NCBI GenBank assembly: GCA_013377005.1
Contig: JACABE010000007.1
Span: forward strand, 55,963 to 119,962
Direction: 5' to 3'
Source: Bacteroidota bacterium
GTDB lineage: Bacteria; Bacteroidota; Bacteroidia; Bacteroidales; JACABE01
DNA: 64,000 nt
Shown here: in pieces, positions 38,281 through 44,708 of the stretch
Layout of the letters: each line of letters starts with the position of its first letter
Numbering within the stretch: position 1 is the first letter of the stretch
Notes under the pieces: model-generated
Databases searched by the model: none
What the model saw: the letters and a program-made list of their open reading frames with translations, nothing else
Told to the model about the DNA's origin: nothing
Position numbers and translations under genes: made by a program

Positions 38281-38904
38281 ATGGCTAAACAAAAGTTTTA
38301 TGTGGTTTGGAAAGGACATCAGACAGGCGTATTTACTTCCTGGCCAGAGTGTGAAAAACATATTAAAGGATATGAAAATGCACTTTATAAGTCATTTGAA
38401 GATATGGAAACGGCTCAAAAAGCTTACGCTTCCAAGCCACATTTATACATTGGAAAGTCAAATACAAAAGCAGAAAATAAAAACACAAAAGACAATAAAC
38501 CCATAATGCAGAGTATTTCAGTGGATGCTGCATGCGCCGGTAATCCGGGATTAATGGAATACAGAGGTGTTGAAACCAAAACCAAAACAGAATTATTTCA
38601 TCAGGGCCCTTTTGTTCATGGCACTAATAATATCGGAGAATTTCTGGCCATTGTTCATGCGCTGGCATGGCTGCAAAAACAAAATAATACATTGCCAATT
38701 TACAGCGACTCAAAAACAGCCTTAGCCTGGATTAGAGATAAAAAAGCCAAAACAAAACTCGATCAAACACCTCAAAACAAAATATTATTTGAATTGATTG
38801 AAAGAGCCGAAAACTGGCTAAGATCTAACACGTGGCAAAATCCTCTGCTAAAATGGGATACTGAAAACTGGGGCGAAATTCCTGCTGATTTTGGAAGAAA
38901 GTAA
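38281..38904 (+). CDS. Ribonuclease HI-family protein with N-terminal viroplasmin domain
   Basis: KFYVVWKGHQTGVFTSWPECEKHIKGYENALYKSF; ISVDAACAGNPGLMEYRGV, NNIGEFLAIVHAL, YSDSKTALAWI. Confidence 0.92.
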   Translation: MAKQKFYVVWKGHQTGVFTSWPECEKHIKGYENALYKSFEDMETAQKAYASKPHLYIGKSNTKAENKNTKDNKPIMQSISVDAACAGNPGLMEYRGVETKTKTELFHQGPFVHGTNNIGEFLAIVHALAWLQKQNNTLPIYSDSKTALAWIRDKKAKTKLDQTPQNKILFELIERAENWLRSNTWQNPLLKWDTENWGEIPADFGRK

Positions 38905-39055
38905 AATTTGAGTTTTATTAATTTAAAAACAAATCCAACTTTAAAGTCAAGGTTTCGTTGCATTTTTTTAAGAATATAACTTAACTACCATTTCACCTGC
39001 TTTACATTCTTTTTAATCGCTAAAAATATAAATTTTAAGCATAAAAATGCTAACA

Positions 39056-39083
39056 ATAGTATGTTGTATGTATTGCATACTAT
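39056..39083. promoter_or_regulatory. Palindromic operator upstream of XRE gene
   Basis: ATAGTATG-N12-CATACTAT, 8-bp perfect half-sites. Confidence 0.6.
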
Positions 39084-39086
39084 AAA

Positions 39087-39094
39087 TAGCTTTG
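39087..39094 (+). promoter_or_regulatory. Bacteroidetes -7 promoter element
   Basis: TAGCTTTG (TAnnTTTG), 20 bp after GTTG at 39063-39066 inside the palindrome, 19 bp before the XRE start codon. Confidence 0.55.
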
Positions 39095-39113
39095 CGGATA
39101 AATAATTTTTCAA

Positions 39114-39326
39114 GTGATTAAAAAAGAAATACTGCTATTATTTGGCGAAAAGGTAAGAAAGCTCCGTAATGAGAAAAATCTTTCTCAGGAACAACTTTCT
39201 TTTAAAGCTGAATTACATCGTACCTATATTGGAATGATTGAAAGAGCTGAAAAAAATATTACACTGGTAAATATTGAAAAAATTGCAAAAGCATTAGATG
39301 TTGAAATAAAAGACCTATTCTGTTAA
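39114..39326 (+). CDS. XRE-family HTH transcriptional regulator (GTG start)
   Basis: LLFGEKVRKLRNEKNLSQEQLSFKAELHRTYIGMIERAEKNITLVNIEKIAKALDVEIKDLF. Confidence 0.92.
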   Translation: MIKKEILLLFGEKVRKLRNEKNLSQEQLSFKAELHRTYIGMIERAEKNITLVNIEKIAKALDVEIKDLFC

Positions 39327-39367
39327 CACAATGCATTTAATATAAATAGTTTTATAAAAGCAATTAT

Positions 39368-41342
39368 ATGAAAATTATACATAAAATAGACGATTTTCTT
39401 TACACAATTTTTCCCGAACTAATGGGGGGGGTAATTCTTTAATTGTCAGTACATTAGAAAAATATTATTCTTTAGGTCCCTTTATACCTAAAGTAAGTAT
39501 TGAAAACGAATGGGTAACTATTGAGATTGATGGTCCCAAAATTCTGCAACAGGAAGCAGATTACCGAAAAACAGTTGACCTTTGTGAAAAAGGCCGATAT
39601 ACCGAAGCAAAACCTATACTTCAGAAACTAATACAGCATAATCCGGGAAATTCTGAATTTCATCGCATTATGGGTCAGATATTATCAGACGAAGGCAAAC
39701 AGGATAATGCTATTGACTGCCTTATTGATGCTTTACGCTGGATCCAAATAACGAATGGGCTCTTATAATGATGGGAAACATTTTTGCAAAATTCAAAAAT
39801 GACATTCCTACTGCCATGAAATATTATGACCAAGCTATTATTGCAAACCCTAACGAAAGTATTGCAATTAATAATATTGGTGGCAACTTATTGCAGCAAG
39901 GGAAAACAGAAGAAGCTAAAAAATATTTCAACAAAGCTTTAAGTATAAATAATAATTATCCCAATACTCATTTTGCATTAGGAATGATTGCTGAAATAGA
40001 AAATGATTTTCATTCTGCTTTCTACAGTACTATCAAAGCAATAAAACTAAATATAAATAGTGATATTTTATATAAAAATTCAGTTGATCAAGCAATTCAG
40101 TTAGCTAAAAAAATGATTACTTCAGACTTAGGAGTTAAAACTTATACTAACTTTAAGCATAAACTTGAATTTGAAGGTAATACAAAAATTGATATTGTTG
40201 AAGATACAACTATTACAACGGCTGCAAAAATTGAATTTGCTGAGATTCATAAAACGATTAATCATGTAATTAAATTCAAATCAAGTTATCCCGCTGTAGA
40301 ACATCTTATTATGCACGAACTTATTCATCTGGATTTTGTAATTGAAGCACGAAAAGCAGATGTAAATATGCTTTTTATATCAAATCAAAGCAATAAAAGG
40401 CAATTTGTAAGCAAACTTGATGTAACTATTAAAAATTTAAAGAAAAATGGTTTAACAGAAGAAATTATTGAAAAACAATACAATAGCTTGTTTGAAGGAA
40501 TAAATCAACAAATTTTTAATACACCTATCGATTTATTTATTGAAGATATTATTTATAAAGATTATGAAGATATCAGAGCATATCAATTTATTTCATTATT
40601 CACTATATTACAAGAAGGTATACAAGCAGTTACTGATAAGAGAATTATTGAATTATTTCAAGCTGATATTATTTCGAAAAGCAAAATTTACAATATGGTT
40701 AACGCCCTTCAATTTAAAGATTTGTATGGCATTGACCTGACTAACGAATTCAAAGCTACTCAAGCTGAACTAAAAACCGCTAAAGAGTTTTACAATGAGT
40801 ATCTGCAGTATAAATATGATAAAGAACCTGCTGAAGAATATGAGCTTGTGCAACATTGGGCTGAAGACCTGAAACTTGATACAAACTTTGAACTTATTGA
40901 TGAAAACACCTATCGAAACAAAAGAACCGATGTAAACAGCATATTGGAATCTATTGAAAAAGAACCTTTTGATATTGAAACCAAAGACCCTTTTAAAAAA
41001 AGGGAAATGGAAAAATTTCAAAAAGCACAGGCCGAATTGGGTACAAATATGGCAGTAGTAATGTATATGGTAGATGCATTGCAATATTTTAATAAGTTGA
41101 CAACCAAAGAAATTAAAGAAATTGCTTTTGAAATAGCTATGCAGGGTACACAAGGCTATAGTCCTGACAAATCAAATTACACATTACATTCCATCCCGGG
41201 CAAAATATTTACAGGCTATCATATACTGGCATATTATTATGTAAGCTGGTCACTTGCAATTCCTGATATGGTTACCGATCTAAATTTGCCATACGAAAAA
41301 GAATATGAATTAGCCTTAACAATGCACAAACCAATTAAATGA
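39368..41342 (+). pseudogene. TPR protein with HExxH metallopeptidase-like domain, two frameshifts in this copy
   Basis: MKIIHKIDDFLYTIFPELMGG[G8 tract]NSLIVSTLEKYYS...AIDCLIDALR[1-nt deletion]DPNNEWALIMMGN joins intact ORF 39768-41342; HELIH at 40314-40328. Confidence 0.8.
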
Positions 41343-41671
41343 TGAAAGAAAGCGAAGAAATAATACAAGCATTATTGAAATTCAGAAATGAGAGAGATTG
41401 GGAACAATTTCACAATCCTAAAGATTTGGCACTTGCAATAAATGTTGAAGCAGGTGAATTACTAGAGTTATTTCTTTGGAAGAATTCAGATGAAGCAAAC
41501 AAAGAAAAAGTGAAGGAAGAATTAGCTGATGTTTTTGCTTATGCCTTTATGCTTGCAGAAAAATACAAGTTTGATGTAAAAGAAATTATCCTTGAAAAAA
41601 TTAAAAAAAACGCTGAGAAATATCCGGTTGATAAAGCAAAAGGAACAGCAAAAAAGTATAATGAGTTATGA
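41339..41671 (+). CDS. MazG-like nucleotide pyrophosphohydrolase
   Basis: FRNERDWEQFHNPKDLALAINVEAGELLELFLW...KVKEELADVFAYAFMLAEKY, EXXE...EXXD helical metal site. Confidence 0.9.
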   Translation: MMKESEEIIQALLKFRNERDWEQFHNPKDLALAINVEAGELLELFLWKNSDEANKEKVKEELADVFAYAFMLAEKYKFDVKEIILEKIKKNAEKYPVDKAKGTAKKYNEL

Positions 41672-44049
41672 TTGTTTATCAATCTACGAAAAGCGGTTTT
41701 CTTAATGATATATTATCTAACAATATAAGTGATATTATTCATACCGCATATTATGAAAGATTAGGCAGACATACATCACAAAATGAAGTTAATTCATGGA
41801 CAAATTCAATGTTGTACATGAATAATATTTTATCAGATACCAAAATACCTGATAGTGCAGGAATATCAATAGAATTCCAAATACCATTAACTTCTAAAAG
41901 GATTGATTTTATAATAACTGGTTTAGATGAATTTAAAAATGAGCAAGTAATAATAATTGAATTAAAGCAATGGTCAAAAGCTCAATTAACAGATAAAGAT
42001 GCTATTGTTAAAACTAGGTTTCAACATGGTGATTCCGAAACTGCTCATCCATCATATCAAGCATAATCTTATGCTTCAATGATTTATAATTTTAACAGTA
42101 CGGTTCAAGATGATAATATTACATTAAAGCCTTGTGCATATCTTCATAATTATAATCCTGATAATGTAATTACAAATAAATTATACAAATATTATATAGA
42201 TAAAGCACCAGTATTTTTAAAACCTGATGCTTTTAAATTAAGAGAATTTATTAAAAATCATATTAAATATGGTGATAACAAAGATATTCTATATAAAATT
42301 GAAAATGGTCGAATTCGACCTTCAAAGCAATTAGTTGATAGTTTGTCATCTATGTTACAAGGAAATACTGAGTTTATTATGATAGATGATCAAAAAGTCG
42401 TTTTGGAAACGGCAATGTCAATTGCAAAAAAATTAAAACCAGATAAAAAGCAGGTCTTAATTGTTGAAGGAGGACCTGGTACAGGGAAAAGTGTTGTAGC
42501 TATAAATTTATTAGTTAATCTTTATGAAAATGGTTTAGTTACAAAATATATATCAAAGAATTCTGCTCCAAGAGAAGTATATTCTACTAAACTCTCAGGC
42601 GTTAAGACAAAAACTGAAATAAGCAATTTGTTTGGTGGTACTGGCTCTTTTATTGACATTGAACCCAATACCTTTGATGTTCTTTTAGTTGATGAAGCTC
42701 ACAGATTAAATTTAAAAAGTGGGTTATATCAAAATCTAGGTGATAATCAGATTGAAGAAATTATAAATGCTTCAAGATTTTCTGTATTTTTTGTAGATGA
42801 TGATCAGCGAATTCATATTAAAGATGTCGGTAGTTGTAAATATATTGAATCTATTGCAAAAAAGAATGGAGCTTTTGTAAGTAAATTGAAATTAGAATCT
42901 CAATTTAGATGTAACGGCTCTGATGGATTTTTATCTTGGCTTGATAACACATTGCAAATTAAAGAAACTGCAAATATTAAATTATCTTCAAATGAATTTG
43001 ATTTTAAAGTTTTTTCGGATTTAAATGAATTAAAACGAATTATTTTTGAGAAGAATCAAATAAATAATAAATCAAGATTAGTTGCTGGTTATTGTTGGGA
43101 TTGGATAAGTTCAAAAGATAATACAAAAACGGATATCAATTTTCCAGAATTCAATTTTGGAATGAAATGGAATTTAAAAAAAGATGGTAGTAAATGGATA
43201 ATTGGTGATGATTCTGTTAATGAAATTGGCTGTATTCATACATGCCAGGGGTTGGAGCTTGATTATGTTGGTGTTATTGTTGGTGATGATTTGAGATTTG
43301 AGAATAACAGTATTATTACAGATGTTCTAAAAAGATCTAGCAATGACAAGTCTATAACTGGAATAAAAAAACTTATTAAAGAGAATAAACCTAAAGCCTT
43401 AGATATTGCTGATAAAATTATTAAGAATACTTACAGAACTCTAATGACAAGAGGTATGAAGGGTTGTTATGTATATTGTTGTGATAAGAATTTAGCATAC
43501 TACCTACAAAGTAGAATAGAAGAAATTAATCTAAACCTAAAAGTTGAAAAACTATTAGAAATCGATACAATCAGAATAGAGCCAACAGTTAATGATGATG
43601 TTAAATATATTGATTTTTTACCATTGTATTCATTAAAAGCTGCATGTGGAGCATTTGGAGAATGGCAAACTGTTAATGAAGATGGTTGGGTTAAAGTAGA
43701 GGGAGTTGGTCGGTTAAATAGAAATATGTTTGTAGTTAAAGCTACTGGAAAATCAATGGAACCAATTATTTCTGATAATGATTTATGTGTATTTAGAGCG
43801 AATGTTGTCGGTTCAAGAAATAATAAGATTGTTCTTGTTCAGCATAATAATTATATTGATTCTGAAAATCAAGGTAGCTATTCAATTAAAAAATATACTA
43901 GTGAAAAGTCGTTTGATAAAGAAACAGGTGAGTGGCAACATGAAAAAATTATTTTAAAGCCATTAAATATTAAATACAAACCTATAATTATTGAAGAAGA
44001 TGATGGGTTTCTTGTAGTAGCAGAATTTGTTTCTGTAATAAAGATATAA
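41668..44049 (+). pseudogene. PD-(D/E)XK nuclease - DUF2075 helicase/ATPase - S24 peptidase fusion, split by in-frame TAA at 42064-42066
   Basis: RIDFIITG...VIIIELKQW; HPSYQA[TAA]SYASMIYNFN in one frame; Walker A GGPGTGKS (42469-42492); LLVDEAHRL; HTCQGLELDYVGVIVGDD; S24 ATGKSMEPIISDND. Confidence 0.85.
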
Positions 44050-44387
44050 ATTGCTGACATATTTGAAAGTAAATTACCTAAGTAATACTAACCAATGCTA
44101 TAAACAAAACTTGCCACTACCTTGAAAAGCATAAAACCCCAAAAAGAGAACAAATTTGAAGTTTTAAAAGTTAACTAAAATCTATTAATCTTAAATCTAT
44201 ATCATTACAATAATTTACATAAATTTAAAAATCTATAGATATACCTTGATGAACCTATAGAAGATAAAAATCCAAATAAAGATTATGTACAACCATTGTA
44301 CATTAAGAAAAGATGTACTTTTAGATTGTTGATAGGTCTAAAAAAGACGAATTTATCCAATATGCACAACAGAATAATCTGTTCAAT

Positions 44388-44708
44388 TTATACCCCTGAG
44401 TTAACTTTTATTCCTACCAGTGAAATAATCAATAAACTGATAAAAAAAATCCGCCAGAATTCTATTGGTTCATTCAATAAAAAGATTCCCACAGTAAAAA
44501 CTCCCAGAACACCAATACCTGTCCATACAGCATAAGCCGTTCCTACCGGAAGGGTCTTTAAAGGTAATGACAAAAAATACAAACTCAATAGCATTGAAAT
44601 TGCAGTCCATATTGAAGGAAATAATTTAGTAAATCCCTGTGTGTATTTTAATCCGATAACCCAGGTGGTTTCAAAACAACCGGCAATTAAAAGGTATATC
44701 CATGCCAT
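44388..44708 (-). CDS. Small multidrug resistance family transporter (SugE/Gdx-like)
   Basis: MAWIYLLIAGCFETTWVIGLKYTQGFTKLFPSIWT; GTAYAVWTGIGVLGVFTVGI. Confidence 0.92.
   Translation of the reverse strand: MAWIYLLIAGCFETTWVIGLKYTQGFTKLFPSIWTAISMLLSLYFLSLPLKTLPVGTAYAVWTGIGVLGVFTVGIFLLNEPIEFWRIFFISLLIISLVGIKVNSGV

What the first reader, a model, noticed from the sequence alone, without database searches (positions are those of the whole stretch)
39056..44049. Candidate undescribed regulated effector operon: XRE - TPR/HExxH - MazG - [PD-(D/E)XK + DUF2075 helicase + S24 peptidase]
Seen directly: four same-strand genes in about 5 kb. The TPR stop overlaps the MazG start (41339-41342) and the MazG stop overlaps the nuclease-helicase start (41668-41671), both ATGA overlaps, so the last three are probably translationally coupled. 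Established: MazG-like enzymes hydrolyse (d)NTPs, PD-(D/E)XK domains cut nucleic acid, DUF2075 is a P-loop helicase-like family, S24 domains self-cleave in LexA/UmuD/CI, and XRE-HExxH pairs control mobile-element switches (ImmR/ImmA-like). Inference: a tightly repressed, damage- or infection-responsive module combining nucleotide depletion, nuclease/helicase action and proteolytic switching. The combination is not one I recognise as a named defence system.
Basis: partly seen in the sequence, partly recalled or inferred. Interest (0 to 1): 0.85.

Follow-up and report, generated by a model that had tools for sequence, protein, structure and literature searches.

The report
Phase-variable nuclease-helicase defence-like operon
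A bacterial gene cassette resembling an anti-virus system (a DNA-cutting helicase, a nucleotide-destroying enzyme and a protease-like regulator) carries a hypermutable repeat that probably flips it on and off at random; the copy in this genome is switched off and partly broken, but relatives with intact effector genes exist.

Summary
The four genes are real, but in this genome two are broken. The TPR/HExxH gene starts at 39368, not 39768. It is thrown out of frame at a G8 tract (39424-39431) and again near 39745. The nuclease-helicase-S24 gene is split by an in-frame TAA (42064-42066). MazG and the small HTH gene are intact.

Comparison gives three results. (1) MazG plus DUF2075 (SLFN-g3) nuclease-helicase is a widespread bacterial and archaeal pair: MazG lies directly upstream in 36 of 76 assessable loci. 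(2) The HTH gene is a restriction-modification controller (C) protein; its inverted-repeat operator recurs before C-REase-MTase loci. (3) The TPR/HExxH gene looks phase-variable: four genomes carry G8/G8/G10/G10 at the same codon and a fifth carries (ACAA)9; all five are out of frame, and such repeats are rare in 1.75 Mb of comparison DNA. TPR/HExxH also sits beside BREX, restriction and McrBC-like genes.

The S24 tail, present in 22 loci, nearly always keeps its cleavage dipeptide and catalytic Ser/Lys.

Best reading: a horizontally acquired, C-protein-controlled, phase-variable defence-type module. It shares a helicase core with Nhi/AbiO but matches no named system. Antiphage activity is untested.

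The parts
39047..39083 (+). C-box-like operator: ATGCTAACAATAGTATGTTG...CATACTAT, 8-base inverted repeat at 39056-39083
   Evidence: Same element upstream of the homologous HTH gene in G155; pattern (<=1 mismatch) in 7 of 384 genomes of the order, 0 for the reversed control
39114..39326 (+). C-protein-type HTH regulator (70 aa, GTG start)
   Evidence: HTH_3 4.5e-15; PADLOC Control_protein 1.4e-26; homologues control type II RM genes in L183, L186
39368..41342 (+). TPR/HExxH gene, broken: out of frame at the G8 tract and near 39745; open only from 39768. HELIH motif at 40314-40328
   Evidence: homologues without these breaks in L056, L019, L141
39424..39431 (+). G8 tract, about codon 20 of the TPR/HExxH gene, proposed phase-variation site
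   Evidence: One of two G8/C8 tracts in the genome; tracts of 8, 10 and 10 at the same codon in G043, G155, G636
41339..41671 (+). MazG-like nucleotide pyrophosphohydrolase, intact, ATGA overlaps on both sides
   Evidence: MazG-like PF12643 1.3e-21; overlaps seen in sequence
41668..42066 (+). PD-(D/E)XK (RecB-type) nuclease part of the last gene, cut off by TAA 42064-42066 inside the QxxxY motif
   Evidence: Invariant D80, E98, K100, Q131, Y135 in 13 relatives; TAA
42079..43635 (+). SLFN-g3 (DUF2075) helicase part of the last gene (Pfam match 42448-43485)
   Evidence: PF09848 2.4e-102
43636..44049 (+). C-terminal S24 autoprotease domain (Cys-Gly site near 43645, GKSM at 43747, Lys in SIKKY)
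   Evidence: Peptidase_S24 1.1e-08; residues conserved in 20-21 of 22 S24-bearing relatives
38905..44387 (.). Acquired segment between RNase H (38281-38904) and SMR gene (44388-44708); exact ends not determined
   Evidence: The two flanking genes lie about 150 bp apart in G001

Best explanation
The locus is a horizontally acquired, restriction-like defence module with three layers of control; the copy in this genome is switched off and decaying. Layer 1: a C protein and its operator autoregulate transcription, delaying onset after entry into a new host (inferred from homology and operator conservation). Layer 2: a simple-sequence tract in the TPR/HExxH gene changes length by slippage and puts that gene in or out of frame, so only part of a population expresses it (inferred from conserved tract position with length differences between genomes). 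Where TPR/HExxH, MazG and nuclease-helicase genes overlap by ATGA, an out-of-frame tract should also lower the downstream genes (inferred). Layer 3: the nuclease-helicase has a LexA/UmuD-type S24 tail that probably self-cleaves at Ala/Cys-Gly when RecA-ssDNA filaments form, changing enzyme activity during infection or damage (inferred; residues and site shown). Effectors: a RecB-type PD-(D/E)XK nuclease driven by a Schlafen-group-3-like helicase attacks foreign or replicating DNA, and MazG hydrolyses nucleotides, either starving phage replication or clearing modified nucleotides released from phage DNA (inferred).
For: MazG directly upstream of the nuclease-helicase in 36 of 76 helicase-seeded loci, 10 with ATGA overlap. 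Nuclease, Walker and S24 residues conserved. G tracts at one codon in four genomes of one order and (ACAA)9 in a fifth, all out of frame; 5 in 31 genes against 0.46 expected, P 1e-4. C protein and operator shared with type II RM loci. Empty site in G001. Patchy distribution, 11 of 197 relatives, and plasmid carriage. TPR/HExxH and MazG-DUF2075 genes found next to BREX, RM, DrmD-like, McrBC-like and type IV restriction genes.
Against: No activity data of any kind. The window copy has further lesions, so it says little about function itself. Tract length variation is between species, not shown within a population; all five tracts are off, which would also fit decay or slippage. The enrichment statistics are post hoc and the genes are related. 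The window itself is flanked by housekeeping genes, not a defence island. Half of the helicase loci lack a directly adjacent MazG.
Confidence: 0.55

Rival explanations
1. Programmed slippage: the G tracts are not a genetic switch but a site of transcriptional or ribosomal slippage that makes a fixed minor fraction of full-length TPR/HExxH protein.
For: All four G tracts are one G away from the in-frame length class and none is in frame; the context CTAATGGGGGGGGTAA is identical in two families.
Against: Tract length differs between genomes (8 and 10), an unrelated tetranucleotide repeat does the same job in G810, and most relatives have no tract at all. Four or five of five off is not improbable by chance ((2/3)^5 = 0.13).
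Confidence: 0.15
2. Housekeeping or SOS repair module: the nuclease-helicase and TPR/HExxH protein process damaged DNA and MazG cleans the nucleotide pool, without a role against phages.
For: S24 tail; TPR/HExxH lies beside UmuDC-like and SRAP-like genes in one genus of the phylum.
Against: Patchy distribution, plasmid carriage, empty chromosomal site, RM-type controller and many restriction and BREX neighbours.
Confidence: 0.15
3. Plain decay: the window holds a dying copy, and the G tract is just one of several inactivating mutations or a sequencing error.
For: A second frame change near 39745 and a TAA at 42064-42066; other copies are broken too (L016, L014).
Against: It explains the second and third lesions here but not tracts at the same codon in three other families, where MazG and, in G043 and G155, the downstream genes are open.
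Confidence: 0.15

Closest known systems
Nhi (nuclease-helicase immunity, SERP2475) and AbiO
   Same: Nuclease plus superfamily-1-type helicase; PADLOC AbiO/Nhi models match the helicase core in 11 of 13 relatives (best 2e-15)
   Different: Match covers only about 180 helicase residues, not the nuclease; Nhi is described as a single enzyme (PMC11811056), whereas here MazG is the usual partner and an S24 tail, C protein and TPR/HExxH gene can be added
PADLOC candidate PDC-S41
   Same: Matches both nuclease and helicase regions in 13 of 13 relatives (best 4.5e-20)
   Different: A candidate model without validated function known to me; scores are weak for a same-family match and it includes no MazG, S24 or TPR/HExxH part
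Pgl / BREX phase variation (pglX G tract)
   Same: A G tract of 8 in a defence gene switches resistance on and off in Streptomyces Pgl (PMC4365076); suggested for BREX (PMC6326788)
   Different: There the switched gene is a DNA methyltransferase; here it is a TPR/HExxH gene, and within-population variation is not shown
C-protein-controlled type II restriction-modification (PvuII type)
   Same: C protein and operator of the same type, found before REase and MTase genes in L183 and L186; C proteins delay REase onset (PMC3695507)
   Different: No methyltransferase in the window operon; the controlled genes are TPR/HExxH, MazG and nuclease-helicase-S24
CapH-CapP / ImmR-ImmA / DdrO-PprI (HTH repressor plus HExxH protease)
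   Same: HTH gene followed by a gene with an HExxH motif, upstream of defence genes
   Different: HTH scores far better as C protein than capH (1.4e-26 against 1.4e-9); no IrrE/M78 or capP profile match for the HExxH protein

Membership tests
Nhi / AbiO | Full-length match to the Nhi or AbiO model (nuclease and helicase) | tested here: not met
   Only helicase residues about 234-416 match positions 174-331 of 468-470; the window protein itself gave no Nhi or AbiO hit
Nhi / AbiO | Protection against phage | not testable with these tools
   No assay possible
PDC-S41 (candidate) | Match over nuclease and helicase | tested here: inconclusive
   Two stretches, E 1e-12 to 1e-20, in all 13 relatives; no curated cut-off given
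SLFN-g3 (DUF2075) helicases | PF09848 above gathering score with Walker A | tested here: met
   343 bits against 24; GGPGTGK invariant
RecB-type PD-(D/E)XK nucleases | D...ExK and QxxxY | tested here: met
   Invariant in 13 relatives; in the window D and ExK are present and the QxxxY motif is cut by TAA
S24 (LexA/UmuD) autoproteases | Ala/Cys-Gly site, GxSM serine and downstream lysine | tested here: met
   20, 21 and 21 of 22 relatives; all three in the window
S24 (LexA/UmuD) autoproteases | RecA-dependent self-cleavage | not testable with these tools
   Needs protein
Restriction-modification C proteins | Short HTH protein matching Control_protein, with a palindromic operator just upstream | tested here: met
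   1.4e-26; operator shared with G155 and with type II RM loci
ImmA/IrrE (M78) or CapP metalloproteases | Profile match to the family | tested here: not met
   No such Pfam or PADLOC match for window or intact relatives; fold hits to IrrE-like viral proteins only at E 0.3-1
Phase-variable loci | Simple repeat in a reading frame with length variation between genomes | tested here: met
   G8, G8, G10, G10 at one codon; (ACAA)9 in another homologue
Phase-variable loci | Mixed on and off lengths within one population | not testable with these tools
   No reads or isolate series available

The most novel reading that the evidence does not exclude
TPR/HExxH plus MazG is a portable, phase-variable switch cassette fitted in front of different motor-nucleases (PD-(D/E)XK-DUF2075-S24, GIY-YIG-DUF2075-S24, McrBC-like, ResIII-methylase). 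The HExxH protein is a new metalloprotease-type activator needed for the nuclease, so flipping of its tract decides which cells of a population are armed.
Probability: 0.3. Interest if true: 0.8.

Novelty: new variant of a known kind. Interest (0 to 1): 0.62.

Why it matters
If right, it adds an unnamed, widespread MazG + Schlafen-like nuclease-helicase family to the candidate defence repertoire, shows that a regulator-like gene rather than a methyltransferase can be the phase-variable element of a defence operon, and offers a self-cleaving (S24) nuclease-helicase whose trigger, RecA-ssDNA, can be tested directly. It also places a bacterial relative of the Schlafen group 3 helicase domain together with a nuclease and a nucleotide hydrolase.

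Tried and rejected
The single-sequence fold of TPR/HExxH was poor (pLDDT 41); the alignment-based fold of the HExxH domain was good (85.8) but found no PDB match below E 1 and only weak viral ones. PDB sequence search gave nothing informative for the nuclease-helicase; for the TPR/HExxH profile the listed matches lie in the TPR repeats. No held paper has DUF2075 together with MazG. Burroughs et al. 2015 on nucleotide-centric conflict systems, cited by DefensePredictor for several such domains, is not held, so an earlier bioinformatic mention of this pair cannot be excluded. Rejected: ImmR/ImmA or CapH/CapP assignment; TPR/HExxH as an essential antitoxin (it is off in genomes with open effector genes); a defence island in this window (flanks are housekeeping). 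dN/dS against G043 (about 0.06-0.13, dS above 1) shows past purifying selection and does not date the decay. The promoter scan was no better than shuffles. All 12 genome searches and scans were samples, so counts are not prevalence.
Full report
Observation. The window (G000:C67, a 3.69-Mb draft genome in 92 contigs) holds the four reported genes on the plus strand. The HTH gene is 39114-39326 and MazG is 41339-41671; both are open. The TPR/HExxH open frame starts at 39768, but the homologous protein begins at 39368: the frame runs MKIIHKIDDFLYTIFPELMGG, then meets a run of eight G and stops. A second frame change lies near 39745. The last gene is one coding unit (41668-44049) interrupted by a TAA at 42064-42066; most relatives have Trp there, within HPSYQAWSYA. 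Nearby housekeeping genes are open, so gross assembly error is unlikely, though single-base errors cannot be excluded.

What the last gene is. Invariant residues D80, E98-x-K100 and Q131-x-x-x-Y135 across 13 relatives mark a RecB-type PD-(D/E)XK nuclease. It is followed by a DUF2075 helicase, now named SLFN-g3 (Schlafen group 3) in Pfam, 2.4e-102. In 22 of 100 collected loci a C-terminal S24 domain follows; 20 of 22 keep an Ala/Cys-Gly dipeptide and 21 of 22 keep the GxSM serine and the lysine, and one (L040) has lost all three. That pattern fits a working LexA/UmuD-like self-cleaving tail. Some relatives carry a GIY-YIG domain in place of PD-(D/E)XK.

The core pair. In a scan seeded with the nuclease-helicase, 36 of 76 assessable loci have MazG directly upstream on the same strand, 10 with an ATGA overlap; three more have it directly downstream. 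The pair occurs in Bacteroidota, Bacillota, Pseudomonadota and archaea, on chromosomes and plasmids. Recurrent neighbours include a NUDIX protein with a PLD-ResIII-DUF3427 type IV restriction enzyme, a DUF3578-type cluster and HNH proteins; a GmrSD protein is also seen. MazG appears exchangeable: the window MazG is 78% identical to one beside a GIY-YIG enzyme (L027) but 48% to that of G043, whose nuclease-helicase is 84% identical.

The TPR/HExxH gene. It is a family without a Pfam model for its C-terminal half. In searches of phylum, order and class it was found beside MazG-DUF2075 (L141, L159, L173, L207), MazG-AAA_5-DUF2357/PDDEXK_7 (L170), MazG-ResIII-methylase (L206), MazG near an AAA-family ATPase that I read as McrB-like (L110), BREX genes (L142 and L172 by PADLOC; L208 by eye), restriction-type genes (L143, L154, by eye), a DrmD-like helicase (L144) and, in one genus, UmuDC-like and SRAP-like genes (by eye). 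It is therefore a defence-associated accessory rather than a fixed part of the DUF2075 system: among the helicase-seeded loci only L056 has it on the same strand next to the pair.

Phase variation. The G8 tract of the window is one of only two such tracts in the genome. G043, from a different family, has an identical CTAATGGGGGGGGTAA at the same codon; G155 and G636 have G10 there. All four are out of frame and lie one G from the same in-frame length class. A fifth gene, in G810 (L207), has (ACAA)9 between the TPR and HExxH regions and is also out of frame there. In 1.75 Mb of collected loci there are 17 repeats of this class, four of them these G tracts. Five in 31 TPR/HExxH genes has P about 1e-4; all five are among the 12 MazG-linked genes and none among 19 others (p 0.005). 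These tests are post hoc, the genes are related, and many of the 19 come from one genus. Off-state genes coexist with open downstream genes in G043, G155 and G810, so TPR/HExxH is unlikely to be an essential antitoxin. Pgl of Streptomyces switches by a G tract of 8 in pglX (PMC4365076), and the same has been suggested for BREX (PMC6326788).

Controller. The HTH gene best matches PADLOC Control_protein (1.4e-26). Upstream lies ATGCTAACAATAGTATGTTG...CATACTAT; the same element precedes the homologous HTH gene of G155. With one mismatch allowed the left part is found in 7 of 384 genomes of the order and never for the reversed control. Of the five further genomes, three (L183, L184, L186) have a C protein next, then a gene beside a convergent methyltransferase; PADLOC confirms type II REase and MTase for L183 and L186. 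Two (L185, L187) show no such genes. C proteins delay effector expression after entry into a new host (PMC3695507). G043 has no such gene upstream, so the controller is optional.

Acquisition. In same-genus genome G001 the RNase H and SMR genes that flank the cassette are about 150 bp apart; in G002 an aldo/keto reductase-like gene lies at this place. The cassette is therefore an insertion of about 5.4 kb; its exact ends were not determined.

Mechanism, shown and inferred. Shown: gene order, overlaps, motif conservation, operator conservation, tract conservation and empty site. Inferred: C-protein delay, tract switching with polar effect, RecA-triggered S24 cleavage, DNA attack by the nuclease-helicase, and nucleotide hydrolysis by MazG. 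For MazG I favour starving or cleaning of nucleotides during phage replication; its repeated pairing with restriction-like nucleases, with NUDIX enzymes in sister loci, also fits removal of modified nucleotides.

Known systems. No full PADLOC system fits; PDC-S41 is a candidate model covering parts of nuclease and helicase, and AbiO/Nhi match the helicase only. DefensePredictor lists MazG among predicted, unvalidated defence domains (PMC13092281). I therefore call it a new variant of a known kind (regulated nuclease-helicase defence), with the phase-variable TPR/HExxH gene as the most unusual element.

Noticed in passing
L047 223-3532; similar in L048, L059, L078, L097, L100: A NUDIX protein (PADLOC PDC-S07) and a roughly 930-1040 aa PLD-ResIII-DUF3427 type IV restriction enzyme recur next to the MazG-DUF2075 pair.
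   Followed up: partly
L145-L148, L150 and related loci (genus g206): In one genus of the phylum the TPR/HExxH gene lies beside UmuDC-like and SRAP-like genes, suggesting a link to the SOS response.
   Followed up: no
L014 734-741: A DUF3883-domain gene on a Hymenobacter plasmid, just upstream of a split DUF2075 gene, carries an in-frame G8 tract near its 5' end.
   Followed up: no
window 38904-44388; G002 C30: The space between RNase H and the ArsC-like gene is a variable site in the genus: near-empty in G001, an aldo/keto reductase-like gene in G002, this cassette here.
   Followed up: partly
L019 (PP438423.1, Microcystis phage Mwe-JY31): A 22-kb record deposited as a phage carries an unbroken TPR/HExxH-MazG-nuclease-helicase set next to a replication-initiator-like and a serine-recombinase-like gene; it may be a plasmid rather than a phage.
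   Followed up: no
L183, L184, L186: The operator ATGCTAACNATAGTATGTTG marks a family of C-protein-controlled type II restriction-modification loci in this order.
   Followed up: partly
G000 C36:4310-4317: The only other G8/C8 tract of the genome lies inside a 410-aa open frame of unknown function and is in frame there.
   Followed up: no
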